NCBI GenBank assembly: GCA_024305405.1
Contig: JAKNDB010000088.1
Location: 1,630,001 to 1,694,000, forward strand
From: Dirofilaria immitis
Lineage: Eukaryota > Nematoda > Chromadorea > Rhabditida > Onchocercidae
Reading direction: 5' to 3'
DNA length: 64,000 nucleotides
Shown here: positions 9,809-46,300 of the stretch, one piece after another
Layout of the letters: every line of letters begins with the position of its first letter
Numbering within the stretch: position 1 is the first letter of the stretch
Made by a program: the position numbers and the translations under genes
The notes under the pieces: model-generated
What the model was told of the DNA's origin: nothing
What the model saw: the letters and a program-made list of their open reading frames with translations, nothing else
The model's database searches: none

Positions 9809-12247
9809 CGAACCTAAAAAAGATGATCAAAAGCAGGAACAATTAAATGTAGATGGAAAGATAGCACAAATACCAATAGAAATAATTTCGCCATTAGCGG
9901 AATCAGAAGGACGAGGTGCATTCCGTAAATTATTTATGAAATTGGGAGAAAAAGTTGGTACCATCAAGATATCTGAGCTTAGTTCGGAATATTTGAATCG
10001 GGTAAAAGATGCAGATGCATATAAGGTAGTTGATTTTCTTACCTGTAAAATATATAATAATGCATTCATCAATCAATCAATATAATCTTATTTCATTCGA
10101 ATTACATCAATTTATAGAGCGAATAAAATTTTTTTGAATTCTCTATTTTTATAAAGAATTTTGAAATTATTTTTTATGTTATTTTATTAATTTAATTTAA
10201 ATAATTTTGAATGTTATCCATCTAAGAATTCATTTCTATCTTAATTTTTTGCTAGCTATTTATGATCATTTGTCCAATTTTGTATTAAATTTGTTTAGTT
10301 TCGATTAAATTTCTTACAAAAATTTAGGAAATATTATGCAAATTATCGGAAAGCATAATGCATGTAATGCAACAAAATCCAAAATTAGTACCTGAAGCGG
10401 AATCAAAATGGAATTTGAATGTCCATTAAATCAAGATCCTATGGAATTATTAGGCATATCTTTGCAAGCAATGAAAGAAAATTTTTCAACTCATATTCTA
10501 GCACTTGAAGTATGATCGAAAATGATTAATGAAATTTTAAATTATTATTATTGATTATATATCAAAAATTACGAACTTAATTTACCAATGAAATTTATTG
10601 ATTCTGCATATGAAATGAAAAGCTTTTTCTTAGATTTAATATCCCAAAAGGATTGAAAAATATTTCTCCACATGGTTTTATTAAAATGTTTCTACAGTGA
10701 AAAATTTATCCTCCAAAAAAAAAATTAAGTTTAAATATACTAAATTAAATTCAAATGTATTTAATAAAATTCAATTTTAATCTTAATTATCATCCATAAA
10801 TAGTTATTTCAATGAGAAAAATATTTCAAATTCAAAAAGACACACTTCGAAAAAAAACATTTCTATGCAACTCATTATTCTTTTTCTTAATGTACAAAAT
10901 TTTTATTTTAAAATTTAATGAATAACATCGACATAAATCAAATTACAATCCTAGGCTTGTATTAACGCTTGTGCAAAATTGGCCATACTACGTCGATCTT
11001 ATCATAAAAGAGGACGTCGAGCTATTCATTACATTCGAACATTTATCAATGTCGATTATGTCTGTAAGATATGCATTTGTATTAAAATTTAATATTTGCG
11101 TATTCATTATATTGATTTACTAAATTATCATATAGTAACTATCAAGGAAAGAAGAAATCGATGAAGTGCGAAATGGAAGATTTAATTTATCAATTAGCGA
11201 ATTATTAATTAATCTCCCTCTATCGCTGCATCATTAATTGTTAATTATTAAAATAGTTTTACTAAATATAAACATAGCAACACGCTATCATTTGTATCAA
11301 ATTAATATTGAAAAAAATAAAAAAAAACAGAATTAGTGGTAAAATAAAACTATTAACTTTGTTATAAATAAAATTTATTTTTAACCAAGTGTTAACTAAT
11401 CCAAAGATTAAACTCTTAGATACTTGATGCAAGAATACAATAAATTTATAAAAACAAGAAAATTTTTGAATAAAAATAAATGAAACTAATCAAGCAGAAA
11501 AAAGAAATTTAGTTAAGGGAAAGGAAACTTTATAAATAATAGTAATTATTTAATGAATAATTTGAGTAGGATAAAATTTTACAAATAATTGATAGCTACT
11601 ATTATATTGTGAATATTTCAACAAGGCAATAGATTGTAGTGATCGAACAAAGAAATGATTTCTATCGAAATAATATAGAACAATAATTTTAGTATTGAAT
11701 AATCAACGTCAAGAGTTAATTAAACGAAGAGAAGAAATGGATTTTGCAAGGCATGAATATACGAATAATCCAAGTGATCAAAAAAAGAAAATTGTGATAA
11801 GGCAACTGCAAGATTTAATGAACAATCAAAAGAAGTAAAAATAGAAAAAGGCTTAAATATTTTATCATTCATACTAAATAAGTGAAAGTATTTTATTATT
11901 CAAATTCAACTTTATTAAAGTCAAACAATAGCAAGATAATAATATGATCAAAATATTCATTATTAATTTTTATTGATAATTTAGATTAAATACTATTATG
12001 TAATAATTCTTTCTTATGTGTGCAAGTTTTATTTAGTAATCTTAACACTATTCAATATAGCATCATCTAAGTTTTACAGTGATTCCAAAGTAACTTTGAA
12101 TTGTTGCAGGTTCTTAAAACTCTAGACACTATTCAATCTAAAAAGGAAAAGCATCATTTGGAGCTTATAAAAGTGTTGGATGAAATGCGCAAATATCACA
12201 ACAGTGCTGCTGAAGAATGTTTTCATGCATGTAAAGCAAAATGGTAA
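9809..12247 (+). CDS. BAR-domain protein (endophilin-like), five visible exons, start not found
   Basis: Exons at 9809-10025, 10328-10509, 10955-11063, about 11138-11230, about 11705-11880 and a last one from about 12112 to the stop at 12247. The order of motifs follows an endophilin-type BAR domain: FRKLFMKLGEKVGTIKISEL, a Tyr-Leu-x-Arg helix, QQNPKLVPEAESK, ILALE, RRAIHYIRTFINVDY, an Arg/Glu-rich stretch with EVRNGRFNLS, RQELIKRREEMDFARHEY, then FNEQSKEV and a C-terminal helix HHLELIKVLDEMRKYHN. BAR dimers bend membranes in endocytosis and organelle dynamics. Two frame breaks lie in A-runs at 10405-10408 and 11780-11786, and one added A repairs each (EAESKMEFECPL; DQKKENCDKATARF). The junction at 11063/11138 is ambiguous. 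No ATG exon or SH3 domain is seen. Either a working gene with assembly errors or an ageing paralog. Confidence 0.6.
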
Positions 12248-12389
12248 TTTGATATATATATTAATTAAAAACTAAAATGGATATTATCAGTTATCGCTTA
12301 ATAAAATTATGAACTATTCTGTATTCCGGTAGTATTTGAAAAAAAACAATTTTATCAACAATAAATTATTAATTTTGAAAGAAGTTAAT

Positions 12390-12620
12390 ATGGAGTAGAG
12401 AAATGTTGAAAAGAGGACAAATATTGTTGAAGAAGTTATTGAATATGTTGCAGTTTGTATATTATTACAGTTGTTGAAGTTGATATAGAAAATGCTGCAT
12501 AGAAAACTGAATTGTTAAAAAAAAAAAATGCTATCGTTGGGAAAATTGTTGACGATGATATTATTACAGCTGTTAAAAAATTTGTTGCCGAAGTTATTAC
12601 TATTGAAAAAATTGATCAAA
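12390..12620. repeat. Degenerate copy of the Val/Glu-type repeat found at 20.6-22.7 kb
   Basis: Short GTTGAAG-, GATATAGAAAATG- and ATTATTACAGCTGTT-like units repeat here as they do in the long array at 20.6-22.7 kb, but stops break every frame. It follows the BAR gene directly. From 12620 to about 13010 I see nothing further. Confidence 0.4.
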
Positions 12621-13019
12621 ACCAAGACTGATGATATCAATAACTATGGCTGAACTAGCATACATCAGATCACATTTTATTCATTAATATTGTGTTATTT
12701 TTTGAAAAAATTTAACATACCCCTGTTCAGGTGGCAATTAGTTAAACTGCTGCTGAAAAGACGTATACAATGGAAAACTAAATTCATCTCAATTTCTCGT
12801 TATGATTTGAAATCTTAATAATCCACGAGATTATGGGAAACGTTAAAAATCTCTTCCTAATTCTGCAACAATGATGAAGTAGTGATCTGCAAATATCTAT
12901 ATTTTTTTAGGAAAAGATGAATGATCTCAAGCACTACATAGATTTCCCTATCTCAAATCGATCTTAGAATCATTGCTAAATTTTATATTCTTTATCGTAA
13001 AATTTTAACGATGATTAAG

Positions 13020-13640
13020 TGAGAACGAAGTTATTTATCGAATTACTAATGTCTGAGAAATTATATTCGCGAAGAATTAATATTTGTGCAGTGTTATGAT
13101 AAGTATATGGACAAAATAGCTACTATTGAAACGAACAAGTGTTTCTTATTCTTAAGAATTTCCTATGTGTAGTTGACGTATCATACAACGGGAAATTCGC
13201 TCTGCAACATTACTTTATCATAATTTATTAATTCTGAACTTCATAAAAATCAGACAGTAAGGAATATCTGTTCGCTTCAAAGTTTTGTAATAAGTATATG
13301 CATAAAATATCCAATTTTGAAACGAACAGGTATTTCTTATTCTTAAGAATTTCCTATGTAGTTGACGTATCATACAACAGGAAATTCGCTCTGCAACATT
13401 ACTCTATCATAATTTATTAATTTGAACTTCATAAAAATCACAATATTTTAAAAAAGTGAGTGGACATAACGCGCATTTCCACTCACACTGATTCATCTTA
13501 TCACAGAACGAAAATAACGGCATGCTGACCGGTAAATGTTAATGGGAATAAAAACTTGCGAAGAAGCTAATCTGACCATTTTTATACAGGTTTAATTCCA
13601 ATTACACTGAATGGTTAATGTTGAAACACTTTGTCGCAAA
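13020..13640. repeat. Dispersed repeat (second copy near 27.0-27.56 kb) with an internal tandem duplication
   Basis: About 155 bp are repeated in tandem at 13093-13255 and 13290-13443, nearly identical around TTCTTATTCTTAAGAATTTC and the stretch with TGACGTATCATACAAC. The whole unit, including the tail with TTACAGAACG/TTACAGAATGG and the ATTACA..GAATG end, resembles 26.99-27.56 kb. No coding potential was seen. A perfect 9-bp inverted repeat (GTGAGTGGA/TCCACTCAC, 13456-13486) lies in the tail. Confidence 0.65.
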
Positions 13641-13815
13641 CTCATCCAAATCAACTGATGATGAATGTTTCATATGATAATTATCAAAGTCGTAACTGAA
13701 ATATATGTAATAATAGAGTTATATATCAATAAAAACTGATAAAATGAAACTAACATAAAAGATGAAAAATCTAAAAAATGGTATAAATCAATAAATGCAA
13801 AACGGAACTAAATTA

Positions 13816-16800
13816 TTAAAAAATTAAAATAAAAGCCTTAACAAACATTATGATTGAATGAACTAACAGGCATGATGAACTAATTGTAAAATCACGCAAT
13901 CCATCGATTTGAGACAAATCATTCACTATAGTTCCGATATCACCATCAAAAGTGTTATGGAAAATACAAGAATTTTTACTTCTAGTCCAATTAATAAAAT
14001 AATTTCGTTTGTATGAAATTAACAATTTAGGTCTTCTCAAATTTAGCCGCCGTAAATTTTCTACGTTAGTCTGAAAAAAAACATTTTAGAAAGATTTTAC
14101 ATTTATTTATCTATCACGATTCTATTACCAATCAAAAAATTTTATTCTTGAAACACCAAAAAAAGCTTTCAGCCATTAAAATAATTCCTCTCCCTTCTCT
14201 ACTGAGTATTTCTTGTCATAACTTCAATAAATTTAAAACAAAGATCATTTAATATTTTTTAGCAATTATCTATAAATTAAAATAGCTCGACATCATCCAT
14301 AATAATTGGAATCTCTTCAACAAACGAATTTTGACGCCCTTTGAAATAAACAATACTTTATTCCCATGAAGCTTGAGAAGGCGCAAATTCGGCAAGTCAT
14401 CATCCTTTAGATTATTCCAAACTTCATCTTTATAGCAATGCCCGAAATGGCTTAGATCCAGAGAGACTAAACGTCTGAAAAGGATGCACGAAATCATTAT
14501 TTAACTTCATGCATGATTATCAAATTCAAAACATGTGGACTGTTGAAATATAAGCCTAATTCTGAATCAATTGACTCTTGTTGAGTCAGAAAAATTTGTA
14601 GTATCCTAAACGAGCATTGAAAAGGCTGAAATGCAAAATAAAACGTATTATTTGAACACTGAAACAACTTTTAAAACAAGAAACAAAAATCGTTCGTAAT
14701 AATCAAGAAATCAAATAACAATAAATGAAATTATTTACTTGAAATGAGTGACAATAAATGGCATAACTCTATCACTAAACGCAAAATATTCATTATATGG
14801 TAGACCGAGTGTTGTCAAATTTGGGCAACTGAAATGATTTATATCTAATTACTGTACAGATATGTTCACAATAATTTACTAACATGAAACACTGATTAAA
14901 GTAATATTACGCTATCACCTGCAAATGCATTTTTTGAAAAAAATTAACTCACTTTCGATCAATAGCTTTAAAAAGATCGACATTGCCTTCGAAGTAATTC
15001 GCAAATACCAAATGTTTAAGTTTAAATGGGAAAGACTTTTCGGGTTCTTTTTCTGGCAAGGTGAATAAAGCAATCAATCCCTCGGGAGAAACGCTACAAT
15101 CTTCGCCTCCGAACCATACTCGTAATTCTTCCAAATTGCACAAATTCTGCAACATTCAAAGAATAATTGGCGATAGAAAGCAGCAATTCATTTCACAATG
15201 CCTATTGCAAAATTTATGAACAGAATTATTACATCCAAATTAAATTCGCAACAAATTTAAGGAGTAGAAAGAATTATAAATTGGAATTACGAAGCACTTC
15301 ATTTCATAACCTTCTAAAAATCGGAAATATAAGTTATCGTATGTAGTGAAGTTTTCAGAAATTTATTAGATTCCTAAAAATATTCCTTCATAATCTCTAA
15401 AAATTTAATTACATTATTCTCACATTCTGGGAAAGCATTAATATCAATATGAATATTCTTTTGGAATTATTTTGCTCGCCTTTAGATGAGCGAATTCTTC
15501 ATCCAACGTATAAAGACTCAAACCCCACGAAAAAACTTTTAAATTATGTAAATATCCAACATATTCAAGGCTACCATCAATAGTATAATAACCAAGATGA
15601 AGTTCAGTGAGTGTTGATCGCCACGGAGAAGTTATGATATTGCTGAAACTGAAAGATATAATATTAATAAATCTACTCAAAACCATCGAAGTATAGCGGT
15701 TACAATGTTTAATTAAACGTTCTTCAATGTCAATGATTTTTTCCTCAAAGAACAAGTTCCGTAGTACGGTTTTAATAAACAATAGCGAAAGGATTTTAAA
15801 AGAAAATAGACTTACTTAATATACGGTGTTCCCTCATAAATATGTAATAAATTAAGCGGACGTTTGTAAAGCGGTAATTTTGGATCATTTTCTGGAGTAT
15901 AACAATTTATATCACAAAGGAAGAAATTTTCCATTTTCGGAAAAACGTTTTCTTCTTCAAATAACGTTTTCAATGTCACCCATTCATCCTTACTATCATC
16001 ACAACTTGACGTCTAAAAACGTAGAGTGTAAATCGCATGGTATTAAATTTAATAATGTAAATATTTAATAATATCGAAATCGTTAATTTCTAAACTAAAA
16101 TCACTATCAGTAAATGATATGCAAATAATGACGCATTGAAAAATTGCATACCTGAAATAGAACAGCGATGAAATAAACTAGAAAATATGATGAAAAGAAT
16201 AAACTTATTAAAGAAATAAAATTTTTGGCGGTGATAATAATAGTACCAATTTAATTATTCAGGTTCTAATCAGCACTCTATTTATCAAAATATTTCATGC
16301 AATTTACGGTATAACCATACCCATTCCATATTTTCCATGTGCAATGTTTGAACATTCGGGAAACAATTTGATAATTTCCTCAATAACGTAGCATTCATTT
16401 CTTTAAAAAAATCATTATTTAGAAGGAAAAATTTTCAAATTCAAGCAAATCAATTCTTAGTATATTATTTCCTTTCTTTACAACAACTTTCTGTCAAATA
16501 AAAAATCAATTTATACTTTTAAAAGAACTAATATCGAGATGGATGACGTAAGGAAAACAAATGTCGAATAATGCGTTAACTTCAGCAGAGGGTAAACGAA
16601 TCGAACAATTAATGCATAGTTTTCGAAGATATTGTGAAGTCTAAAAATATATATACATACGAATGAACTGAGTCTTAAAATATATATAAACGAATGAAGA
16701 TTAAATTCATCAATCAACAAAGAAAAACAAAAGAAAAGCCAAATTTATTTTCGTCTCCAAATAATTATGGCTCATAAATGTAAGAATTTCTCTCGTTGAT

Positions 16801-17172
16801 TATCATACATTATTACACATACCCTGTGGAAAAATGTTTTTACACTGCCATATTTCAACGAAAAATCGTTGATTAATATCCGGACTTCGGTGAAGAAAGC
16901 AGGATGATTCGCCAAACAATTCCATCGATGAGAAACCAAAGAGAAGCAATGGATTAAATCAATCGGATGACAGTAACCAAATATTATCAATAATATATCA
17001 TTTGGCAAATCATTTATTGTAATAAGTGTTTCCTTAACGAGTTATGATTGAAGGAATTTTCGCTCGTAATGCTTCGTTCCATTAAATTATATTTTCTAAT
17101 AATTATGACAGAAAATACCTTCTTGACGTTTGAATCGGCCATAAATTCATCGACGTCTATTTCACTTCCCAT
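13816..17172 (-). CDS. F-box protein with leucine-rich C-terminal part, 10 exons, intact
   Basis: Exons from 5' to 3' on the minus strand: 17119-17172, 16823-17032, 16517-16640, 16321-16400, 15816-16012, 15480-15648, 14953-15146, 14739-14828, 14357-14474, 13816-14070. All phases agree and the sum is 1491 nt, 496 residues plus stop. The protein starts MGSEIDVDEFMADSNVKK. An F-box follows at about residues 27-65 (NDLPNDILLIIFGYC, LVSHRWN), then LRR-like units such as YLRKLCINCSIRLP, LLRKLSNCFPNVQTLHMEN, STLTELHLGYY, LCNLEELRVWF, CPNLTTLGLPYN, LVSLDLSHFGH and VENLRRLNLRR. By family it would be the substrate-binding subunit of an SCF ubiquitin ligase. The intron after exon 6 begins with GC (AAG then GCGAGC), and the phase on both sides supports it. 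A TTTTCAG lies 6 nt before the ATG. Two decayed copies lie at 7.1 and 31.8-33.7 kb. The last residues (from about SSCLLVHS) depend on the final exon call. Confidence 0.88.
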
Positions 17173-17178
17173 TGCAAT

Positions 17179-17185
17179 CTGAAAA
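17179..17185 (-). promoter_or_regulatory. Candidate spliced-leader acceptor of the F-box gene
   Basis: On the minus strand TTTTCAG ends 6 nt before the ATG at 17170-17172, the same arrangement as at the acyltransferase gene. Confidence 0.45.
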
Positions 17186-19210
17186 TTTATTTGTTAAGAA
17201 ATAAAATGCAAATATAAATATAACAGCGAGCAAGTCTAGTTTTTCTAAAAACTAAATCACCTGGGACTTTGAAGAAGTAGCACTGACTTCAGGAGATGAA
17301 TATGAAGCATAACCAAGTTTTTTAATGGATAGTATGTTTCCAACTGATAAGCATGAGGCCTAAATCTGACTCGAAATCAGTTAACCGATAAATGAATATT
17401 ATTTCAAGTTAGAATCTCTAAAGGAAAACTCTTCTCTTGAATTTTGTCCAGCATCTTCAACAGCAGAAGGAAACTTACGCCTCAAAAAATTTGTATTTTC
17501 TGTCCACCGTGTCATATTTGCGCGATAAAGGCCAATATCGCCCGGGCGATTTTGTTATTTCATTCATTCTAAAAGAAAATAAATTTATATTTAATTAATA
17601 TGGGCAAAAATTAATTCAATAAGAAATTATCATCGGAATTTCATATGTTGAAAACAAATAATAGTCATTTTTTGAGCATAAATTGAATAATTATATTGAA
17701 ATCACTTATTACAAAAATCAATCGATAAACAAACGAATGATAAACTTTCATTAGTCATAATAGAAGAATGAAATCAACTTTTAGTAAACAAACACTGAAA
17801 GCAACATATTTGACAATTTTGCCTGTAACTATGCTGATTCATAGTTAAACATTCAAACTTTACCTGTAACCACGGTGATTCATATTTAGACATTTAAACT
17901 TACAGCACTAGATAGTTTTAACATTCAAATAAAAATCGATAAATAGAGCGAAAGAACAAAATAATCAAAAACGAAATGAATTTATCGAAGAAGTTGGAAC
18001 AGAAAGTAAAAACAAACCAAATCAAAGTGACATACAAAAACGAAAATTTTTTCGCAAAAGTAATAAAATTATTAAATTAATCGTCCCTTCTCGTATAATT
18101 ATGCGAGTCATTTATATGATGTCAGTCGCGGAATTGGTTATTAGAAAGGTAACAAACAAAAAGTCTTCCTAAGATTTAAGGAATACAAATTAAAATGTTT
18201 ATAATTTAGCAGATGGACTTTTTTTCGTTCATTTCTGTTCGGCTAATTAGATTTTCATATTAATTTGAATTTAATGTTTTCAAATTTCATCATGTCGGGA
18301 AGATCTTTTGTGATATGATACAAACGGATTTTGATGAGAAATGTTTTATTTCACAAAGCCAGGATAAAATCAGATAATATCACGATAGAATTTGATTAAT
18401 TGGTTGTGGTGGAGGAGGGTTTGGTGCAACTCAAATTGGATAAAATTGGAAGGTATTGACTGTCAGGTAACCTAATGAGTGCTGATATTGATAGATTGAT
18501 AATTATCGATTGAAACACTGAATCTCAACTTCAATCATGATATTATGTGATTGGAAGATTCTTCCTTTTATATGGATAATACTTGGTCCTTTGTAGCGAA
18601 ATGTGACTTGCAGTATTATGCAACAATCAGTATCGGTTATCAAACAAACGACAAGAAATATAGGCAATATTTACAATATTTCAAGTAATTAAATAAATCT
18701 TAGTCCTGGCAATATTCCAGATAATAAATATGTAAATCAGGAGATGAGATAATAAAGCATCTTTGTATGATATTTGGATAAATGATTCATTTGTCCGAGA
18801 ATATATAAATAAAATTCTTATATTTCTATCATATTTGTATTTTATAATTTGGCTTTTCCGACATTGAATGTAAAGAATTAGATCAATTCTTCTTTTTCTG
18901 CTGCAATTTTGCCACTTAATAATTATTAGTGATAAAACGTATTGATAATTAGTTTGCTTTGAAATATTAAATGAGATATTTGATTTGTTTTAGTTATTTA
19001 AATGCAAAAAAATTAAAATCAAATTTTTCTCATCGGTGGCTTATTGATAAAATAACTTTGCTCTAAATATCAGACAAATTGTCATCATTATTATTCATAT
19101 TTTTATAAATGTATCAAATGATTCGTTGGTTTTCCAAATGATTTAAAAAAAAGATCATTAATAACTAAACTTGAATCAATTTTTCGTCAAACGAAAATAT
19201 AGCATATTGC
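17186..19210. repeat. Duplicated block, copy B (flank of the F-box gene)
   Basis: Non-coding flank upstream of the intact F-box gene. It matches copy A (7.2-9.6 kb) over most of its length and copy C (32.7-33.7 kb) around 17430-17560 and 18050-18290. At about 19210 it passes into decayed acyltransferase exons, while copy A at the matching point (9610) passes into BAR-gene flank. This is a recombination junction. No intact gene is seen inside. Confidence 0.7.
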
Positions 19211-19230
19211 TTTGCTACAGTAATCCTTCA

Positions 19231-19740
19231 GAATGAAGCATTTCTATTGTCACGAGGAATATCACTGAATTTCGCAATGAAAACCCGAAGTAAAATGATT
19301 CATAACTGAAATGGATCAATTGTTTCGTGGTATCAACGAAATTGATATTGATGAAGATTTCTGATTATGATTTGTGCACCTGATTCTAATTGTTATAAAG
19401 CATGTGCATGCATAATATACAGCATGTTACATATTATTTTTTGTCATTTTTAAAGACTTCAAAAGATTGAAAGTCAAAATATAAACAGATATGAAATATT
19501 TTAGCGAAACTCTTATTAATTTTTCAATAGAAAATTTGGATACTTTTAAAAAAATATTTTAGAATGTAAAGAGTACGGACGTCATATGTCGTAACTTTAT
19601 ATACAATAGTTAGTCCGATTTGTCAATTTGAAAACTATCTCTACAAACCATTCCTAATTTTGTAAAAATGACTGCGAAATATCGAATTGGTAAAAATCTT
19701 ATTTACAAAATGCGTTATTTCCTCAATTCCAAATTTTGAA
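19231..19740 (+). pseudogene. Decayed copy of NRF acyltransferase exons 2-3
   Basis: 19231-19420 matches 1351-1540 (GCATTTCTATTG, AATTTCGCAATG, AAATGGATCAATT, GCATGTGCATGCATAATATAC), and 19640-19720 matches 1730-1810 (CTCTACAAACCAT, TCTTATTTACAAAATGCG). The copy carries stops and frame changes (AAC TGA in the exon 2 counterpart), and about 60 bp unrelated to the parent are inserted at 19573-19630. No later exon of the gene was found here. Confidence 0.75.
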
Positions 19741-19953
19741 TTATATGAACATTTTTCTGAAGAAAATGTATTTTCATCAGTCTTATGAAAATCAAAATCA
19801 TATGAATCACTTTCGTTCTGAATTTTACGATAATATCGAAAAAAAAATGCTATGTAAAAAACTGTACATGTGCGATTTAGAAATCGCAAAAAGTTAGTTT
19901 GACCAATCAAACCAACTATTATACATGAAATTGCGACATATGATGTCCTAGGC
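19573..19953. mobile_element. Inverted-repeat pair enclosing the decayed exon (possible MITE ends)
   Basis: The left arm starts at 19575 (GGACGTCATATGTCG) and the right arm, read on the other strand, starts at about 19952 (GGACATCATATGTCG). They stay similar for about 50 bp, with ATACAATAGTTAGTC against ATAATAGTTGGTTT. No transposase frame is present. The material between the arms includes acyltransferase-derived sequence, so a simple MITE is not certain. Confidence 0.4.
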
Positions 19954-20600
19954 AATCTGTAGCTGCATGTTAACATTATGAATGTTCGATAGCAAGTATT
20001 CTTGCGACTTTACAGAAAATTTTTTCATTTATCTTTGCTAATCAATTATTTAATATCCCATTGTGACTTTCTCGTTTAAGCAAATAATTTTTTCATAAAA
20101 GTTCCAAAAAATTTTTCCAAGATGGTCGTTGAAATATTCTAAAGAAAAAGCTTTCTTATTCAGTTTCCGTTTATACCTTCAAAACTATAATATCATTATA
20201 CAATTTTTCCAAAATTCTTGAAACTAGAGTTGATCGATTTTTGGTAAAACTGTTGGTAGTAGCCAATTTTTTACGCCAGATATATACGAGAATGATATGA
20301 TATTATATGTAACCATTATGTTGAAAATTCCAATCTAAGCTGATGATATTTAAAAAATTGGTGAAAAAGAAATCTTAGTATGCAATTGTATAATCAAAAT
20401 CTTGATCAATTGTTGCATCCATCTTTATTTGCCCTGCTTTAATTTTAAATAAGTTGAAATTATTTAAGTAAAAGTTCAAACAAAAGGCGCAGAATCCAAA
20501 TTCAGTTTATTTTCATATTCAAACGGAATTTGAGCGTTGGGAAAATTTTTTGACGAATATTTTTCCAGTGAATACTTCTTTCTTCCATTGTAATGTATAT
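19954..20600. other. No feature seen
   Basis: AT-rich sequence without long open frames or clear repeats. The Val/Glu-type repeat starts to become visible from about 20600. Confidence 0.5.
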
Positions 20601-22680
20601 TTTCTATTAAGGAGAAGAAATTGATGTTAAAGAATTACTTCGACTAGCTCTTGATAATTCCAGGCTAGGAAATGCTGAAATGAGACGAGATTGAAGGATT
20701 TTAGTTTCATTTAGAAACTTTGAAAAACAAATTATAGATGCTGCCATCATTGCTAGCATGTTAAAGCATTAGAAATCAGAAGACGTCGAAATATAAAAAT
20801 CAAATATCCCACAGACAATTGAGCTGCTGAAAGATAAATTATTTGTTATTACTGACATGATTAGTAAAAAAAACTGTTTTCCTTTCGAACTTTTTGAAAT
20901 AGAAAGCACTGTTGTCTGGAATGCTGCTGAAATAAAAGAAAACATTTCTTGTTGCTGCAACTGTTAGAGAAGAATCTGATGTTGTTCATGAAAGTTGACA
21001 TGAATGAGATTTTCAAAAATTATTAAAATGATTGGAGAAAAAATTGCTAATGTTTTAGAATCTGCTCAAGAACACTTGTTATTCGAGTTAAGAGTTGCTG
21101 AAAAGTAAACAGCCGTTTCGGATTTATTGTAAAAATTGCTAGGCTGCTGGCGATGATAATAAAAAGACGCTGCTGTTGTAGTTGATAAGGAGAAAAGTGT
21201 GTATACCGTTACTCAAGGAGCGGTAGTTATCGCAAAAATCATTATAGCAGTTGTCATTACAGCTTATACTTTATAAGTATTAAAAAGAAGCAGTTGTTGT
21301 TGGGAAACTGTCAACGATTCAGTTGCAGTTCTAATTAATGGAAAAGTTGGTGTGAAAAATAAGTAATATCGAACAAGTTACTGAAGACTATGTAGCAATT
21401 GCTGTAACTGTAGAAGAAGATGTTTCAGCTGCGAAATTGCTAACTTAGAGGCTTCTGCTGCAGCAGAAGTTCTTGAAGAAGGAAATATCGTTGTTGAACT
21501 TATTGGAGAAGACAAGGAAAACTCTATTCCTGTTGGCGAACTTGTTGAAAAAGATTCTGCTGTTCGTGTAGCTGCTGAAGGAGTTAATGTGGAGAATTCT
21601 ATTGTTGCTGGAGAAGTTGAAGAAGACGATTCAGCTGTCGTTGTTGTTGTTGTCGATGCAGTTAGTATTGAAGAGTTCGTTTCTATTGGAGAAGTTGATG
21701 TAGAAAATATTGTTGCTGACGAATCTGAAGAAGACGATTCAGCTGTCGTTGTTGTTGTTGATGAAGTTAATGTAGAAAAGTCTATTGTTGTTGACGAATT
21801 TGCTGAAAAAGATTCTGCTCTTCCTGTAGCTGCTGAAGAAGTTAATGTGGAGAATTCTATTGTTGTTGGAGAAGTTGAAGAGGACGATTCAGCTGTCGTT
21901 GTTGTTGTTGTCGATGGAGTTAGTATTGAAGAGTTCAGCGAATTTGTTGAGAAAGATTCTGCTGTTCGTGTAGCTGCTGAAGGAGTTAATGTGGAGAATT
22001 CTATTGTTGTTGGAGAAGTTGAAGAGGAGGATTCAGCTGTTGTTGCTGCTGATGAAGTTGATGTAAAAAGTCTATTGTTGTTGGCGAGTTTGTTGAAGAT
22101 TCAACTGTTGTTGTTGTTGTTGTTGATGCAGTTAGTATTGAAGAGTTCGCCTCCATTGTAGAAACTGACGTAGAAAATATTGTATTTGGCGAAGGTGAAG
22201 AAGATTCAGCTGTTGCTGTAGTTATGGAAGAAGTTAATGTGGAAAAATCTGTTGCTGTTGGTGAATTTGTTGAAGACGATTCAACTGCTGTTGTAGCTAT
22301 TGAAGGAAATTCATTTGTTGTAATTTTTGGAGTTGATGTGGAAATTTCTGTTGTTGTTGGGGAAGATGTTGCAATTATTTGATATAACATTTTTAAACAA
22401 TAACAATTTGGTGGAAAAGTTGGTAAAGGAGGCATTTTCGCTGTTACAGAAGTTGTTGAAGACGGAATGATGGTTGTTGAATTTGTTCGAAGACCTGATG
22501 TTGAAGGAATTATTGAAGACAATGATATTGTCGTCGGGGAAGCTGTCAAAGATGAAGATGCTGTTGTGATCATTGAAGTTGCTTCTGAATCTCTTGCTGT
22601 TGAGGAAATTGATGGAGATAAGGTCGAAGATGATGTCGATTTGAATGGCTGAAGTAATGCAAGCTTATTTTGATGAAGAG
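20600..22680. repeat. Long GTT/GAA-rich coding-like repeat; open on both strands
   Basis: From about 21400 the plus strand reads a repeat of about 36 residues with the pattern VNVENSIVVGEVEEDDSAV, a Val run, then SIEEF. It is open from 21385 to 22161 without any ATG. One missing base near 22062 shifts the frame, and the same pattern continues to a stop near 22381. Another piece (EVVEDGMMVVEF) runs from 22427 to 22652. The minus strand has an ATG-started open frame of 232 codons (22001-22699) rich in Ser, Thr and Pro (TTTTTTVESS, NSPTTIDFS), a mucin-like composition without a signal peptide. From 20600 to 21380 related units are broken by many stops. Both readings arise from one expanded nucleotide repeat, so which strand codes, if either, is undecided. 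Confidence 0.55.
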
Positions 22681-34377: not shown

Positions 34378-34524
34378 TCACTTGCTAATTGCTAGCATTG
34401 GAAACAAACGAACAGAGGGTTTGAGAATCAGACGATCCATTCATTATTCATTCATTTAAATTTCGACATTTTTCCTCATCATATATGCTCTCGAACTTCG
34501 TTTTCATCGTAATGAACTATTAAT

Positions 34525-34875
34525 TCAAATCACTCTACCATCATATTGAAGTTTTCATAATGCAGCCGATTCTAAGCGAATGCACATTTATTGATGTATT
34601 CTCAAAGTCATCATGACGAACGATAAATTTAAATCACTTATATTTGATTGGCTTCTACATTATCATTTTTGAAGCTTCTGTAGCTGATTCTAAATGAATG
34701 CATATTTATTTCGAAATTCGATGGTATTCTCAAGCTCTTTATCATCAATATAAAAGATAAATTCAAGTCACCTATATTTGATTGGCTTCTATACCAGTGT
34801 TCTTGAAGTTTTTGCAAATGTAGCCGAATGAATATGTTTATCTCAGAAGTTGATGGATTTAAATCAATTCAAAGT
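34525..34875. repeat. Imperfect tandem repeat, about 130-bp unit, nearly three copies
   Basis: Units begin near 34527, 34632 and 34763 and share AATCAC-TATATTTGATTGGCTTCTA, GAAG-TTTTGCA/TAATG-AGCCGA and GATAAATT(T/C)AA. They are non-coding. Confidence 0.65.
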
Positions 34876-34879
34876 CTAA

Positions 34880-36340: not shown

Positions 36341-36344
36341 TTCA

Positions 36345-36440
36345 GAATTCAATGTTTCAGATTCTTACCTAAACAATTCAGCGACTAATTCAAATTCTAT
36401 TTAAACAATTTAATGCTAATTTAGATTTGATGAATTATCA
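36345..36440. repeat. Direct repeat flanking the hormone exons (other copy 37035-37145)
   Basis: Both copies read TCTAAC/TTAC-CTAAACAATTCAGCGA, AATTCAAATTCTAT and AAACAATTTAATG(C/T)TAATTTAGATTTGA. They sit on either side of exons 2 and 3 of the glycoprotein-hormone gene. Confidence 0.7.
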
Positions 36441-36471
36441 AAATTAAAACTTATTAAATTTTTAAACTTAC

Positions 36472-37316
36472 GCTTTGCAGACACATTTTGCATTACGTAA
36501 TATTGTTACTGTACGAATTTCCGGTTCAGCATTATCATCGCAGTCTGTTAATGTTATCTTTTCGAATTTGCCACCTTCCGGAACGCATACTTCACTTTTT
36601 GACTTCGATGAGGGAATTCATGAGTTCCAAACTAAAATTTCAATTGAACATCTTTCCCGATAATAATACTTTTTGGTATATGTAGGTATATAGAAAGGCT
36701 ATAGAATATTATTTTCTAATTTATGCAAAGCAATGAAAGCAAACCTCATAGGTTGGACAAAATCCTCGACAAACTGGAATTGTCAGATTAATCCGGCAAG
36801 TTTTACCGTTTTTATCTGTTCGAATTAACGGATTCATGCCTGGTGCATGTATCATCTTCAGAAAACATACATTATGCTTCTTTTTTTCTGTTTCTTGAAT
36901 TTTTCTCGGATGCTAAATTGGAAAAAATATGGAATGAAACTAATTGTCATTCAAAAAAAAAAATTTTATTCGATCATCATTACTTTTTGCATGCTATTTT
37001 TTCGTTAAATATAAACAGTACATTTTTAATACTAATTTAGATTCCCATCTAAACAATTCACTGTTAATTCAGATTCTAACCTAAACAATTCAGCGATTGA
37101 TTCAAATTCTATTCTAAACAATTTAATGTTAATTTAGATTTGAATTTTTGCATAAATTAATAATAATTTTTGAAAAATAGTTTTTTTAATAATTTTTTGC
37201 AAAAAGAAATTTTTATCAAATAAAAAAATAAAGAAAAAACCCACAATTGAAGATGAAAAAGCAATTGATGTAAAAATAATTGCCATCAAACAAATGACGC
37301 TTAACGATGAGAGCAT
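36472..37316 (-). CDS. gplb-1: Glycoprotein hormone beta subunit (GPB5/thyrostimulin-beta-like), cystine-knot preprohormone
   Basis: Exon 1 (37245-37316) is a signal peptide, MLSSLSVICLMAIIFTSIAF. Exon 2 (36745-36912) gives NVCFLKMIHAPGMNPLI, RTDKNGKTC, then RINLTIPVCRGFCPTYE. Exon 3 (36472-36631) gives FGTHEFPHRSQK, then SEVCVPEGGKFEKITLTDC and VTILRNAKCVCKA before GTAAGT. The spacing of cysteines, the D-x-x-G-x-x-C motif and C-x-G-x-C fit the beta type of invertebrate glycoprotein hormones, which pair with an alpha subunit (FLR-2 in C. elegans) and signal through an LGR receptor. In exon 3 the frame breaks in an A5 run (36596-36600). One added A restores it and makes the exon phase correct. 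Otherwise a weak acceptor at 36603 would remove FGTHEFPHRSQK. The last exon, with the final cysteine, is not found. An alpha-type assignment is less likely but possible. Confidence 0.72.
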
Positions 37317-37518
37317 TATTCAATAGTTGGAGGATGAACGAGAAGAAACGTTGTTAAGCATCCGTTACATAATCATCAATTTGCTTTTGCAATATCAACA
37401 TCATTGATCAATTTTTCTATCACTGTTTTAAATGATTATTCATTGATGAGAAATTTCTTCATATTTTAATTTTATCATTTTTACTTTAACTCCATTCTAA
37501 ACACTGCGTGTTGAAATT

Positions 37519-37850
37519 TGCTTAAAAATATTTATCAATAATTACTGCAAACAAAAATAATTTTGCTTAAAAATATTTATCAATAATTATTGTAAACAAA
37601 AATAATTTGCCTAAAAATGTTTATCAATAATTATTATAAACAAAAATAATTTGCTTAAAAATGTTTATTCAATAATTATTGTATACGAAAAAATTGCTTG
37701 AAAATGTTTGCCAATAATTATTGCAGACAAAAACAATTTGCTCAACATTGTTTATCAATAATTATTGCAGACAAAAACAATTTTTTCAAAAATGTCTATC
37801 AATAATTGTTGTAAACAAAAATAATTTGCTTATAAATGTTTATCATTAAT
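37519..37850. repeat. Tandem repeat, about 44-bp unit, eight copies
   Basis: Unit TTTGCTTAAAAATGTTTATC followed by AATAATTATTGTAAACAAAAATAA, with moderate divergence between copies. It lies just upstream of the hormone gene's start (minus strand), where its promoter would be. Confidence 0.85.
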
Positions 37851-37859
37851 AATGATAAT

Positions 37860-40320
37860 ACATGAAAAAATGAAAGGAAAAACGATTTAAAATAAAATTT
37901 AAATCTTTTCAAATATTAAAATATTGTTTGCACATTAAATAAATATTTAAAAAGAATTATTTCAAAATATTTATCCGTTCCTTAAGTAAATTACATTTCT
38001 TATGTTTTTATTTGTTTTTATTAAATATAAATTACTAATTTTTGCAACTTCGATAAAAATTAAATAACAATAAAATGAAAATTTAAAAAATCCAAATCCT
38101 AAAATATTTAATTGACTGAAGAAAAAAATGTTAAAATATTTGATTAATATTGGCGCAATCGTTTATCAATATCAAATTACGAATATGATAATTTTATTGC
38201 TATATGATAATTGTTGATATTCATATTACATTGTAATTGCTAGGATGAATAAAAACTCATTCAGTTATGGAAATATAATAATTTAAATCTAATAATAAAT
38301 AAATTATTATTCCTTTACTAATTACGAATTATTAATATTTTCATTTCCAGCCTAAATAAGTCGAACATAGAAAATTTTATTATTATATTATTTTTTTCTT
38401 TTAGCAATATAATTTCTTCTCGACACTTTTTTAAAATTAATTGCTAATATTTCTAACTGATTAAAACTTAAATGCAAATTTGAATTTCAGGAAATGATAT
38501 TTTTTTCGACTGCTAAAACTATCACAAATTTTCAAAATGTTTGAAATATCCGATTTTCGAAAAAGAAAAATCATATTTCTAAAACTTGATCAATATATTG
38601 TTTCAAATTCTAATAATATAATTTTATTTGTTTCTTCAAGTTTCAGTTTTTTTTACAAACCATTGAGGACGAAATCATTGATAAATTAATTTTATCAGAT
38701 TTTTGATAAAAATATTTTTAATCATTTTCATTACATTTGTTAATAATATGAATATGAAAATATACCGTTTGTAGAAATTATTGCAAAAACTTTTGATATA
38801 TTGTTTCGAACAATTTTTGAATAATATTTTAAATTGTATTAATTAAAAGTTTTAATTATTAAATATTTCTATTGGAATATTTTAATAGGAAATTAATTTT
38901 TCGTAAATAAAAATTTCAACCGCTACTATTACCTATAATTTTGAATGTATATAATTTGTTTTTTTCTTAAATTATATTTTATACTAACGAAATCAAATTG
39001 GAATAATATTTTTAATTCAAAAAAATTAGAACTCTCTTGTACTTAATATAAATTAATGAAAGAAAATTTTTCATTTTACCCAATTGTGTTATTTTTTCTT
39101 ATCATTGCTATTTAAAAAATTTTTAAGTTTTTGTGATATTTTATCAAAAGGATAAAAAATGATAAGCAAAATATCGTAATAAACAATGAAATATGATATT
39201 GGGAATTGTTTAATTTATGTTCTAAGTAGTATTTTTGATTTTATTAAAATTTGAATAATTTTTTTTGTCGAGGAAAAAAAGCCTTGTTATAATTAATTAT
39301 ATTTCTCTTCGTAGTTTATTTTCTATTTTGTGATAATATTTATGCTAAATTGATGATGATACTGTAATCAGAATTTCAGTGATAATTTATTCAAATACTT
39401 CTTTTCGTTTTTTTTTTTTTTATTAAATTTGACATATTGAATATTGAAATAAGTAAAACGTTATCACATATTTGAAATATTTTATTCGCTCTTTTTGATA
39501 TTTTTGAAAAAAATAATGAATTTTCAAAAAATCATAATTATAACTTATCAATTTTGTCAATTAATTCAATGATTTTTAATCAGCTTTATCAAGCGTCATC
39601 AAGCGATACGTTTGATTAATACTACAATCATATCAAAATTGATATGATGCAAATTTCTGAAATCATTTTTTCTTTTTTTTTTTACAAATGAGCAATTCAT
39701 ATATAAAATTTTGCAAAAAATAGAAGCAAAAAAATGATTGTATCACTGAGAATTATATAATAATACTGAAATAGAAACAAAATCTACATATAATACGACA
39801 AATGTTAAATATCAAAAAAATGATAATAATAAAAATAATCGATTGACCTTTCTTTGATCTTTTAGAATTCCTTATCAAAAAATGAATTTAAACAAAATAC
39901 AGCATGAATAATTCATACAAATATATATATATAACGAAAAAAAAAAATCAAAAAATTTTGCTAACAAAATATACAAGCAAATAAAACAAATTAAAATGCT
40001 AAAACAAACAAACAAACAAATAAAAAAAGAAAACCTACATATTATAAATATAGCATTCAAAAAAAGGAATAAATTATATATTATTTACTAAAATATATAT
40101 TTATATTAAATAAGAAAAAAGAAAAAAATATTTTTATACAATTTCATTTAATTACAAACAAATAATTTGTTGAGAAAAAGGAAAGCTTTTCTTCGTCGTT
40201 TTTTTGTTTTTATTTGTAAACTAATCAATTTCATTTTAAGTAATTATCAATACGATTTGATATCATCGATATGATGTCGCAATTTGTAACGAATGAAAAG
40301 TAAACAAATAAATAAGTAAT
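37860..40320. other. No feature seen
   Basis: Extremely AT-rich intergenic sequence between the receptor's stop and the hormone gene, full of poly-A/T tracts. The open frame at 39875-40060 (minus) is Phe/Ile/Cys-rich and looks like chance. Confidence 0.45.
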
Positions 40321-40322
40321 TA

Positions 40323-43300
40323 TTAACTTCGTTTTAAAAATGCCATTGTATTTATGCCACCACCGGTATATTGTCGCTTCCAATTTCCCGTTAAAATTCG
40401 CATATAAGTTAAGCGAAATCGCGGATTACAAAAAGCATAACAAAATGGATTTATTGTTGAATTAATATAGCATAGAAAATATGCGATATGAAAATATACT
40501 GCCGGAATTGAATCCTTATAAAATGCTTCCCAACATACGATAACTGAAAAATACAATATGAATTAGAAATGATTAATAATATTAATTAATTAATTTATTT
40601 ATTTATTCACTGTAATTTACTTTTTTTAATCAAAATATTGAATTAAGTTCCATGGATAACGATTGTTACATATATTTGTATTGAATTTACAGAGAGATTT
40701 CTAGATTTGTATCAGAATTTTCAAAATTTATTGCATATATTTATTGACATATTATGAAATTTTCATATTATATTTAAAAAAATTTGTTATTTTGAGGAAT
40801 CAAAAAATATTTGCAGAAATTTTTGATTGATTAAAAAAATTATCGGAAAATTTTGAAAAAAGTTAAAAATTTTAATAATAATAAAATAATTTTTCTTTTT
40901 TGGATTTTCATTTACAAAGATATTTTTATCATTTCTAATTTTTCTAAAATTATATGTTTAAATTGCTACCGTATCAATTTTCTTTTGCACATTATCATCT
41001 TTAACAAATTAAAATACAGTAATCTAAAAAGAAAATAAAAATTACGATATTATTGATTTAAACGAGAATATATAATTTATTTAGAAAAAATTTTTTTATT
41101 TTTACTTACATAACAGTAAATGATAAAAAAGAAAAAATATATTCATTTCCAATTCTCATCATTTTTACAACTTTTTTTTCGAACTTTTTCATTTTGCCAA
41201 ATATTAGCATTTGAAACAGTAATAAGAATATCAAATATTTTTAGTAAGGCATTAAATTTTTTTCTTTTTCAAATTTAAATTATAAAAAAAATGATAAAAA
41301 GTTTTTAGAAGTTTGATTTCATTTATCATTTTATAAATGAATCATTTAATAAAACAAGAAAAAAATAAAAGTTTATATTTCCTGGCAATGAATCATTCCA
41401 TAAAACATAAACGATGTTTATTCATTCATTTCCAATTTTTTCATTTCAAATATAATTAAATTAAATTAAATTTAACAAATATTATTTTTACCATTATAAG
41501 GCGTCCATGTAATAATAAATGCTAATAAAATGGCAGAAAGTGTTTTTGCTGCTTTACTTTCTTGTTTTCGCTCATTTTTCGTCGTTCTTTCTCACTTTTT
41601 CGTTGCTCATTGAATAATTTACTGAAATTATTCATTTTTGATAATTCTGATAACATTTATCAAATATTACGAAATATTCAGAATAATTAAATTTGAAAAT
41701 TTTTTTCACTATCGATGTTTGAATTTTGAATCAAAAAATTTTTTTCATTTCAACATTCAACTATATCAATGCATAATGCATACATGGAAATAAAACTGAA
41801 ATAGCATAATGCATACATGGAAATAAAACTGAAATAGAATTAGATTTAAGAAGAAAAAAGGTTATTTTGGTGATTATAAATTTGTAATATGTAATAATTA
41901 AAAATAAGAAATGATTAGAAGCAAAAAGAATTGAAATAAATTTAATTTCAAATTTGCCCAAATTAGCAATGAAATTTATTAGAATAATCAAATTTATTTA
42001 TGCTAATTAGTTCCGATTAAAAATATTGGAAGTGGAAAAATTTTAATACACAAATAATTTATTATTTGTGTATTAAAATTAAATTATGCAAAATTTAGGA
42101 ATGAAATAAAACTTACTTGGCTATAAATGTTCCATTTAAAAGTTGTTGTGAGACCATATTTTTACGAATATCGTCGATTTTCTCTGATACAAAACGTGAT
42201 GGCCTTTAACAGAAATTGATAAATGAATTTAAATTTGATTATGAATTTGATTAAATAATAATGATAAAGAGTAGTAGCGGAGATTGAGAAAGAAAGAAAT
42301 AAAATAAAAAGAAATTTATTACCATCTATTATTTGAAATAAATTAATTCCATTTAATTTTTGATTAATTATAACAAAAAAAAACAATTTCTTACCTATTT
42401 GTTAATAATTTTAAAAGTAATAATAAAAAAAATAGCAAATTATCGATTGCTTTTTTACTTTATATATTTATAAATAATAAATTGATAAACTTTAATGAAA
42501 TAAATAATTATAAGAAAAGAGAATAATAATAATAATAAATTTTATTGCAAAATTTTGAATTAATAAAATGATAAAATAAAAATTATCAAATTGTAATTTC
42601 TGTTTAAATTAAAAAGATTATCAAAAAGTTAATTATTACTCGGAAATATCTGAACCAGATGAAAGACGTATACGTGATTGTCCCTGTTCATTATCTTTTA
42701 ATTCAATTAAAACAGTATATGTGGAAGATTTATCTTTACGAGTGATTGTACGATTTCCGGTTGATAGTATCGATTCCGATAATAAGCTATTATGTTCCTA
42801 AAATTTTTTCATTCCAAAAAAATGAATTATTTCCTTTTTTTGAATTTTTATTTATATTGAATAAATTACGTAATAAATATATGATAAAATTGATAATAAA
42901 ATTAGAAATTTGTATTTAATAAATTAATTCATAATTTATTATTTCAAATATAGTAAAGTAGTAAAATAACTATAATATCATAGCAAAAAAAAAAATTTTC
43001 TATATGAAATTTTTAAAATTAGATAACAAGAAAAAGAAGGCAATTTGAAGCAAAATTAATAATAAAATATGATCATCATAATTATCATAATAAAAATTGA
43101 TCATATCAATAAACTGATAATATCAGTAATTAAAATATAATAATTGTTATAACCAAAAAAGATTGATAGTATATCAATTAACCTGATTAGCTAAAATTGT
43201 TGGTGATGATCGATTGAAACGATTTTGTGCACAATAATATCGCGTATAATTACTACTAGCTCCCGATACATCATCATCTTGACCAATTTGTTGAATATCA

Positions 43301-46300
43301 CTGTTACTTTCATCCAACGAATTGCCAATAATTTTTCCATAACAAATTCGTAAAAACAATTTCGTTTTTTGTTATTCTAAAATTTTAATTAATAAAATAA
43401 TAATTCTTATTTTAGATAATAATAATAATAAGTATAAAAATATTAAAAGTAAAATTAATAAATAAAAAAGTTAATCAAAAAAATATGAATTAATTAAATA
43501 ATTTACTTTGATAGATAATTATTTGATTGATGATTTGTTATTCGTCCATAAAACGAATTTTTTGTTGAATTTGATAAAGTACTTGATTGTGCTTCTTTTT
43601 AAATTTCTTATAATGATTCTACAATAATCAATACATATATATGCATGCATATACTGATAATATTCAAATTTCAAACTTATAATAAATATGTATATGCATG
43701 TACTGATAATATTCAAATTTCAAACTTATAATAAATATGTATATGCATGTACTGATAATATTCAAATTTCAAACTTATAATAAATATGTATATGCATGTA
43801 CTGATAATATTCAAATTTCAAACTTATAATAAAAATCTTTTTAATTAAGCAATTATATGAAATATTTCTTTTATTAATATTTTTAAATAAATATTTTTTA
43901 CTAAAAATTATAAAAATTTCATTAATATTAATAATTATTTAATGCTATTAATAATTAATTAGTTTTAATAAATATGGGAGTGAAATAATTATTGTTTAAA
44001 TAAAATATTAAACAATAATTGATTAAATACAAATAATAAAATAACATATTAAGTTATGATGCTCTTGCTAACAATTATTATTAGCATTATCATCATTATT
44101 ATTACTTAAAATGATGCACTAAGTTATGATGTTCCTGTTATCAATTATTATTATCATTATCATTATTATCTAAAAAAATAATTTTATTATTTAAAATGAG
44201 GCACTAAGCATGATGTTCTTGTTTTCAATTGCTATTATTATTACCATTATTATTACTTAAAATAACACATTAAGTTATGATGTTCTTGTTATCAATTATT
44301 ATTATCATTATCATTATTATCATTACCTGACCAGCTTGTAAACGGCACATATCTTTCTGTTGTTTTTTGTTTCATAATATACTCGTGAATATAATATAAT
44401 CATAATTACAAGTGGTAACCAAAATGCAGCAATTGTTGTACCAACAGATGCAAATTGATTCGTTTCAATAAATTGTACGACACAACGATCTGACTGAGTA
44501 AAATGACCTGAAATTAATAAATTATAATTTTACAACAAATCTAAAAATTATATTTGAAAAAAAAGTCATTAGCATATCATACCTTCAATATATGGCCAAC
44601 TAATAATCCATGGTGGCCAAAGCATAGCAGAAGCAATATAAGTACTAGCAATCATCATAAATGCTTTTTTGCAGTTCGTCTATAAATTGATTTGTTTTTA
44701 ATTATTGAATAGAAATTTAAAGAAAAAAAGGAATTTAAATTTTAATAAATTGGAAATAGAATTAGAATAAATAATTAATTAAATAAAATTAATATTATAA
44801 AATGAAAGGGAAAAATTTCAATTTCAACAATTCTAAATTTATGAATAAATTTCTATTTTTAATTTATCCTTACTAATTTTTATCAAAAAAACTAATAAAG
44901 TAAAATATAATATATACGTTCAAAATTGCGCAAATAAAATGAAAAACCAAAAAAAAACGAATCAAATATACAAAAACCTTGGCCGATAAGTTAATGGCCT
45001 AGTAACTGAAAAATATCGATCAAATGAAATTAGTAATAAATTGAGCACCGATGCATTACACATCATATAATCAAGGCATAACCAAAATTGGCACATTGCA
45101 TAACCTAAACCCCAAATAGTATCAGCAGCCATATAATATGTCATAACTGGTATCGATACTAAGCCTGAAATTGCAATTATCATTTTTTTTTATTATCTTT
45201 GGCCAAAATTATTATTTTTTTGTCTTCTGAAATATCTAAGATTGATTTTTATATTTATATAGTAAAAAAATTATGTATATATACATATATGAAAATGAAT
45301 AGAAGTGAAGAATTTTATTCTTTATTTTTTTTTTTTTTTGAAATTCTTGGCTATATATTACTAACTTTTAATTCATTTGAGAATTTAATATTTCGAATTG
45401 GACTGTTTAAATGATTTTTTTGTTGTTGTTGTAATAAATAAAAGATAATAGTGTGTAAGGATATGAGAAATTTGATTTAAAATTTTAATTAGTTAATTTA
45501 ATCAGTTTATTAATTAACCTTATTTAAACACTTTGCATAATGCTTCTTTTAGATTCCCCATATTTATTTTTAAATTTAAATAAAGTTATCTGAAATTATC
45601 AAATTTATTAATTGCAAATTTTAATAAAAGAAAAAAAAGAAAGAAAACACAGATAAAGGAATTTTCATTTTTGTTTACTTTTTTTTTGTTATCGATAAAA
45701 ATATTTCAGTTGTTTATCGATGATTTATTTTTCAAAAATTACTGATGCAGCAAAAATTAGCTTTCAAAGGATGAAAAAAAAAGGAAGAAGAAAAAGAAGA
45801 AGCATAAACAAATATGAAAATTATATATTTTGCTTATTATTTTAATAAAATTAAATTCCATTTTGATTAATTGAAAACAAAAATTTTTTTTCAAAGGTTT
45901 TCTTTTTTTTTTGAAAAATTTGATTGATAAAATATTAGAAAGAAAATTAAAATTAAATAAAATAATTACAACGAAATGTTATATTTTTGATTTCTTTCAT
46001 TTCTCTCTTTCTTTTGATTTCTTTCGTTTCTCTTTTTCTTTCTTATTTCTTTCGTTTCTCTCTTTCTTTTGATTTATAATTTAGCAAATAGTAATTGAGA
46101 AGAAATTGGAAAAATTATTCCAAAAAAAAAATTAATAATATTGAAATAATTTTTAGATTGTTGATATTTACTAAAAAATTATATCATTTGTAAATAATAA
46201 TTTTCAAAAAGTAAATATTTAAATATCATAGCCAAATAATCATTTCCAATTGATACTTAAGAAAGCGATGATAAAAATATTCTTTGACTGATGAAAAAAT

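What the first reader, a model, noticed from the sequence alone, without database searches (positions are those of the whole stretch)
10405..44670. Seven frame breaks, all in A-runs of the coding strand, all repaired by one added A
The breaks lie in the BAR gene (10405-10408, 11780-11786), the hormone (36596-36600) and the receptor (41575-41579, 43332-43336 or 43365-43370, 44363-44368, 44665-44670). Each sits in a run of 4 to 7 A in the sense strand. In the six cases where both exon edges are clear, the added A restores the conserved protein and also brings the exon length to the phase needed by both neighbours. Random mutation would not choose only A-runs, only -1, and always keep splice sites and motifs. 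The likeliest cause is homopolymer undercalling. The alternative, programmed or tolerated slippage on A-runs, would be remarkable.
Basis: partly seen in the sequence, partly recalled or inferred. Interest (0 to 1): 0.8.

Follow-up and report, generated by a model that had tools for sequence, protein, structure and literature searches.

The report
Broken frames are likely sequencing errors
Three worm genes look broken because single letters seem to be missing in runs of the letter A, and since the same kind of loss turns up in actin, tubulin and chaperonin genes on other contigs of the same assembly, it is most likely a sequencing error and not biology.

Summary
The window lies in an 86.7-Mb, 65-contig nematode assembly. 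Six of the seven reported breaks are supported as one-base-short frame switches at or beside A-runs: hormone and two receptor sites firmly by homologues, one receptor site less firmly, two by the Pfam BAR model. The seventh (43332 or 43365) is not established. The same lesion occurs elsewhere: 19 breaks in 19.3 kb of actin, alpha-tubulin and chaperonin coding sequence (18 losses, one doubtful gain), in 13 of 17 genes, against 3 in 92.8 kb of simulated genes. Of 16 breaks placed on a run, ten are in A-runs and six in T-runs, so sense-strand A is not special. Twelve of 19 lie within 6 bases of a run of 5 or more, against 6% of random coding positions. The window's run content predicts 4.2 breaks; 6-7 is unremarkable. 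In 224 kb of this genome, A/T runs of length 6 and 8 are 30% and 35% rarer than their neighbours imply, and likewise after masking open frames (33%, 26%). Homopolymer undercalling in a long-read consensus explains this; expression-level slippage or pseudogenes do not. Platform and species are unknown, and no reads were seen. Not a biological feature.

The parts
10405..10408 (+). BAR gene, frame switch 1 at an A-run read as 4 (one base short)
   Evidence: Pfam BAR 59.3 bits with the switch, 42.1 without
11780..11786 (+). BAR gene, frame switch 2 at an A-run read as 7 (one base short)
   Evidence: Pfam BAR 59.3 bits with the switch, 41.2 without
9809..12244 (+). BAR-domain gene (PF03114, E 5.9e-16), exons read by eye at about 9809-10027, 10329-10511, 10957-11063, 11705-11836, 12112-12244; no second copy found with its first 101 residues as query
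36596..36600 (-). Hormone gene, frame switch at a sense A-run read as 5 (one base short)
   Evidence: alignment to PDB 8enb_B, E 9.2e-21
36484..36912 (-). Cystine-knot hormone-like gene (PF00007, E 5e-5; only PDB match 8enb_B), two exons read by eye; no second copy found
41568..41579 (-). Receptor, probable frame switch before TM6 (one base short; exact run ambiguous)
   Evidence: human M3 alignment, shifted codon 41568-41569; M5 alignment begins after the site
43332..43370 (-). Receptor third-loop exon, claimed break: not established
   Evidence: nothing aligned covers it; alternative AG acceptors inside the exon
44363..44368 (-). Receptor, frame switch after TM5 at a sense A-run read as 6 (one base short)
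   Evidence: human M5 alignment, shifted codon 44366-44367
44665..44670 (-). Receptor, frame switch before TM4 at a sense A-run read as 6 (one base short)
   Evidence: human M5 alignment, shifted codon 44671-44672
40346..46860 (-). Muscarinic-type GPCR gene (PDB M5 E 6.6e-79; 7tm_1 E 9.4e-37); introns 45165-46699, 44680-44977, 44508-44582, 40544-41491 placed by the aligner; other matches in the assembly at most 42% identical

Best explanation
The frame breaks are most likely homopolymer-length errors in a long-read consensus assembly, in which runs of A or T are read one base too short, and the genes themselves are probably intact in the worm. Shown: six of the seven sites are frame switches of one base lost at or beside runs (one of them less firmly); breaks of the same kind occur in conserved housekeeping genes on other contigs; they fall in T-runs as well as A-runs; they sit at long runs far more often than chance; and the run-length spectrum of the assembly dips at lengths 6 and 8, also outside open frames. 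Inferred: the data were nanopore or another deletion-prone long-read type with little accurate polishing. Untested: raw reads or RNA at the sites.
For: (1) Beyond the window: 19 breaks in 19,326 coding nt of 17 genes (3 actins, 1 actin-like, 8 alpha-tubulin-like, chaperonin subunits CCT3, 4, 5, 7, 8): 17 of -1, one of -2, one doubtful +1; 13 of 17 genes have at least one. The aligner makes 3 false breaks in 92,844 simulated coding nt. Three breaks lie between flanks that match 12/12 residues on both sides: one in an actin, two in one alpha-tubulin. (2) Two alpha-tubulin genes on different contigs (C60, C10) are one base short at the same conserved run. (3) A-runs and T-runs break alike: 10 and 6 of 16 placed breaks; for runs of 4 or more, Fisher p 0.79. 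(4) Long runs: 12 of 19 breaks lie within 6 bases of a run of 5 or more, against 6.3% of 5,512 random coding positions, p 1e-10. With breaks placed by eye: 1/563, 4/184, 8/49, 2/16, 1/4 for runs read as 3 to 7. (5) The window is not exceptional: 4.2 breaks expected from its runs, P(>=6) 0.25, P(>=7) 0.13. (6) Run spectrum over 224 kb: length 6 is 520 against 741 expected from lengths 5 and 7 (z -6.2), length 8 is 89 against 138 (z -3.2); length 6 for A alone 0.72, for T alone 0.69; Markov simulations 1.07 and 1.04. With open frames of 60 codons or more masked: 0.67 and 0.74; in introns of the surveyed genes 0.71 and 0.67. (7) Yardsticks: a MinION assembly of B. malayi kept 553,752 indels in 90.3 Mb after polishing; its authors name homopolymer indels as the platform's commonest error (PMC6925183, passages). 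Nanopore reads underestimate longer homopolymers, mainly by deletions (PMC8486125, passages).
Against: No raw reads, short reads or RNA could be examined, and the platform is inferred. Break density in the window (6-7 in about 2.5 kb of exons) is above the survey mean of about 1 per kb; run content accounts for part of it (4.2 expected). Four of 17 surveyed genes have no break. All 3 false breaks of the simulation are losses too, so the sign bias alone is weak evidence; the 30-fold excess is not. Three of the 19 survey breaks are doubtful and the placing on runs was by eye. The phage controls for the spectrum (1.10 and 2.00) are weak because those phages hardly have runs above 7, and no accurate nematode genome was at hand. 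In the five 10-kb pieces the length-6 dip is milder (0.83; length 8 0.58).
Confidence: 0.95

Rival explanations
1. The DNA really is short and the worm would restore the frame by slippage of RNA polymerase or ribosome on A-runs (programmed or tolerated).
For: Three of the six located window sites read as X XXY YYZ heptamers in frame (A AAA AAG at 11780 and 44665, A AAA AAC at 44363; read by eye). Slippage at poly(A) that corrects frames is known in insect endosymbionts (PMC5009743, passages).
Against: The other three located sites are not such heptamers. Elsewhere breaks also lie in T-runs and once at a run of 3. All three surveyed families (actin, alpha-tubulin, chaperonin) have breaks, 13 of 17 genes. 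The run spectrum is distorted outside open frames and in introns too, which slippage during expression would not do.
Confidence: 0.02
2. The three genes are real pseudogenes, each carrying inactivating deletions.
For: As assembled, the next stop in the old frame comes 4 to 18 codons after each of six sites. No second copy was found.
Against: The receptor alignments (conserved transmembrane parts only) need no stop codon, only -1 switches. The same lesion is in chaperonin subunits CCT4, 5, 7 and 8, which are essential in other animals (recalled).
Confidence: 0.02
3. At least one of the seven reported breaks is an exon-model mistake: a different splice site avoids the frame change.
For: The 43332/43365 exon has AG acceptors further inside that would bypass it.
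Against: For 44363 and 44665 the aligner was free to place GT-AG introns and still chose a frame switch; the hormone match continues across its site. So this can touch the seventh site, not the set.
Confidence: 0.3

Closest known systems
Homopolymer deletion errors of nanopore assemblies (Brugia malayi MinION assembly, PMC6925183; read error profile, PMC8486125; passages seen)
   Same: Short losses in homopolymers, more with length, spread over the genome, cutting coding sequences short
   Different: Platform of this assembly not known to me; about 1 break per kb of coding DNA here, against about 6 indels per kb of all DNA from that paper's table
Transcriptional slippage correcting poly(A) frameshifts in insect endosymbionts (Buchnera, Blochmannia; PMC5009743, passages seen)
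   Same: AT-rich genome, frame breaks in A-runs
   Different: Described there at long poly(A) runs in a few genes; here runs read as 3-7, T-runs too, and run lengths outside open frames are affected
Frequent +1 ribosomal frameshifting in Euplotes (PMC4759687, PMC10235951; listing and abstract starts seen)
   Same: Many genes need a frame change
   Different: There +1, at stop codons; here one base is lost and the next stop in the old frame is 4-18 codons on

Membership tests
Long-read homopolymer undercalling | Deletions dominate | tested here: met
   18 of 19 survey breaks are losses; the aligner's 3 false breaks in simulation are losses too
Long-read homopolymer undercalling | Errors concentrate in long runs | tested here: met
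   12 of 19 breaks within 6 bases of a run of 5 or more, 6.3% of random positions
Long-read homopolymer undercalling | Independent of strand and gene; spread over the genome | tested here: met
   A 10, T 6 of 16 placed; breaks on eight contigs besides a doubtful ninth
Long-read homopolymer undercalling | Distorts run lengths outside genes | tested here: met
   length 6 ratio 0.67 with open frames masked, 0.71 in introns
Long-read homopolymer undercalling | Raw or short reads show the longer run | not testable with these tools
   no reads available
Programmed -1 ribosomal frameshifting | Slippery heptamer X XXY YYZ at each shift site | tested here: not met
   3 of 6 located window sites fit (by eye)
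Poly(A) transcriptional slippage | Confined to long A-runs of expressed genes | tested here: not met
   runs read as 3 and 4 and T-runs; introns affected
Euplotes-type +1 frameshifting | +1 shift at a stop codon | tested here: not met
   losses; next stop 4-18 codons on at six window sites
Pseudogene | Mixed disabling lesions such as stops and insertions | tested here: not met
   receptor alignments: 0 stops, only -1 switches; hormone and BAR not tested for this

The most novel reading that the evidence does not exclude
A nematode whose DNA truly carries one-base-short homopolymers throughout its genes, essential ones included, and corrects them all by slippage during transcription or translation.
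Probability: 0.015. Interest if true: 0.9.

Novelty: not a real feature. Interest (0 to 1): 0.1.

Why it matters
It warns that gene models from this assembly cannot be trusted at the base level. At about one break per kilobase of conserved coding sequence, many genes will look truncated, and any claim of pseudogenes, lost exons or recoding made from it needs accurate reads first. If the slippage reading were true it would be a new kind of genome-wide recoding in an animal, but the run-length evidence outside open frames speaks against it.

Tried and rejected
Searches found nothing only because I set the E-value limit too strict; I repeated them. The COX1 search gave only weak matches, so no mitochondrial genome was at hand as a check. 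Paper searches did not identify the assembly or species. Rfam found nothing in the window at gathering scores. Six longer ORFs of the window had no Pfam match at E 0.01. An HSP70 survey did not run.

Rows left out: of 9 actin-family places, 4 were fetched. Of 26 merged stretches (8 genes) were taken as alpha-tubulin; 8 other tubulin stretches under my score limit were not surveyed; 11 were chaperonin stretches. Of 8 chaperonin genes pieced together, 5 were surveyed (no PDB searches left for the other 3), CCT7 only in three pieces. Of 19 survey breaks, 3 were not placed on a run (two in the actin-like gene, including the only +1, and one in the C16 tubulin); one search uses all 19.

Full report
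Setting. The window is G000:C18:1630001-1694000 of an assembly of 86,694,620 bases in 65 contigs. The 22-base nematode spliced leader SL1 (sequence recalled) has 58 exact matches, 40 of them in a tandem array on contig C13 with a period of about 420-435 bases, and none for the reversed control, so the host is a nematode. Species and platform are not known to me.

The genes. The receptor is a muscarinic-type GPCR (best PDB match human M5, E 6.6e-79; Pfam 7tm_1). The hormone has a cystine-knot domain; its only PDB match is chain 8enb_B, named Cys_knot domain-containing protein (E 9.2e-21); that this is the C. elegans glycoprotein hormone alpha subunit is recalled. The third gene has a BAR domain (E 5.9e-16). 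Searches with parts of each found one copy in the assembly; the receptor has more distant relatives at 33-42% identity. Hormone and receptor are not an obvious ligand-receptor pair (inference from the families).

The observation. I wrote an aligner of protein to genomic DNA that allows GT-AG introns in all phases and frame switches of either sign at equal cost. With human M3 it puts one at 41568-41569, in a stretch with several short A-runs, whereas the M5 alignment begins after that place and needs none. The hormone match to 8enb_B runs on both sides of the named run in two frames. The BAR switches lack a homologue, but the Pfam BAR score is 59.3 bits with both and 42.1 or 41.2 bits when one is not made. 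The seventh (43332 or 43365) is in the unconserved third loop and is not established.

Local or genome-wide? I aligned conserved proteins to other loci of the assembly. In 19,326 coding nt of 17 genes (three actins, one actin-like gene, eight alpha-tubulin-like genes, chaperonin subunits CCT3, 4, 5, 7 and 8) there are 19 frame breaks: 17 of one base lost, one of two bases lost, one doubtful gain. Thirteen genes have at least one; two actins, one tubulin and CCT3 have none. A control on 72 simulated genes (92,844 nt, 60-85% identity, six introns each) gave 3 false breaks, all losses: the rate is about thirty times lower, but the sign alone should not be leaned on. One actin and one alpha-tubulin (twice) are broken between flanks with 12 of 12 residues identical on both sides, and two alpha-tubulin genes on different contigs are short at the same conserved run. 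CCT7, on the window's own contig, is broken near an exon end.

Which runs? Without placing breaks by hand, 12 of 19 lie within 6 bases of a run of 5 or more, against 6.3% of 5,512 random coding positions (p 1e-10). Sixteen could be placed by eye: ten in A-runs and six in T-runs of the sense strand (one T3 could also be C2, one A4 could also be G1). Among runs of 4 or more, A and T do not differ (Fisher p 0.79). The share broken is 1 of 563 for runs read as 3, 4 of 184 for 4, 8 of 49 for 5, 2 of 16 for 6 and 1 of 4 for 7. The window exons hold 39 A-runs and 23 T-runs of 4 or more; at the survey's rates 4.2 breaks are expected, with P 0.25 for six or more and 0.13 for seven or more, and a chance of 0.17 that six would all be in A-runs. 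Neither the number nor the base needs a special cause.

Run lengths outside genes. In 224 kb of this genome (window, five 10-kb pieces from five contigs, gene loci) A/T runs of length 6 number 520 where the neighbours 5 and 7 imply 741, and length 8 numbers 89 where 138 are implied (z -6.2 and -3.2); A and T alone give 0.72 and 0.69 at length 6. With open frames of 60 codons or more masked on both strands (115,894 bases left) the ratios are 0.67 and 0.74, and in the introns of the surveyed genes (21,514 bases) 0.71 and 0.67. The five 10-kb pieces alone give 0.83 and 0.58. Third- and fourth-order Markov sequences give 1.07 and 1.04 at length 6. Two AT-rich phage stretches give 1.10 and 2.00, a weak control because they hardly have runs above 7. 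Bacterial and human reference genomes are reported to have run-length distributions that tend to fall exponentially, and nanopore signal to be well segmented up to five bases with longer homopolymers underestimated (PMC8486125, passages). Dips at 6 and 8 fit a consensus that miscalls run length; a biological cause is hard to see (inference).

Rivals. Slippage in expression would not change run lengths in introns, does not explain T-runs or a run of 3, and only 3 of 6 located window sites are slippery heptamers. Pseudogenes would show mixed lesions; the receptor alignments have no stops, though they cover only the conserved parts. Euplotes-type frameshifting is +1 at stops (PMC4759687 and PMC10235951, listing and abstract starts), whereas here the next stop in the old frame is 4 to 18 codons away.

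Verdict. [quoted passage not shown] What remains untested is the direct look at reads.

Noticed in passing
   Followed up: partly
window 43650-43835: Several near-identical tandem copies of an AT-rich unit of about 56 bases in a receptor intron (by eye).
   Followed up: no
window 48933-49322: Open frame made of tandem copies of one peptide (FYRIIYLDISTSSYHLLPLIDSSN), so a DNA tandem repeat.
   Followed up: no
window 62151-62730: Three overlapping frames all open over a simple repeat (HSFIHSFIHS).
   Followed up: no
window 21378-22161: Long open frames on both strands over a low-complexity serine/threonine-rich stretch.
   Followed up: no
window 1-64000: GC is 23-32% in the first 32 kb and 19-22% after 36 kb.
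   Followed up: no
G000:C64, C58, C26: Six COX1 matches are weak and five carry stops by the standard code: probably nuclear copies of mitochondrial DNA; no intact mitochondrial COX1 seen in that search.
   Followed up: no
G000:C13:1458577-1475216: Forty exact SL1 copies in tandem with periods of about 420-435 bases; the units could serve as replicate measurements of run-length error.
   Followed up: no
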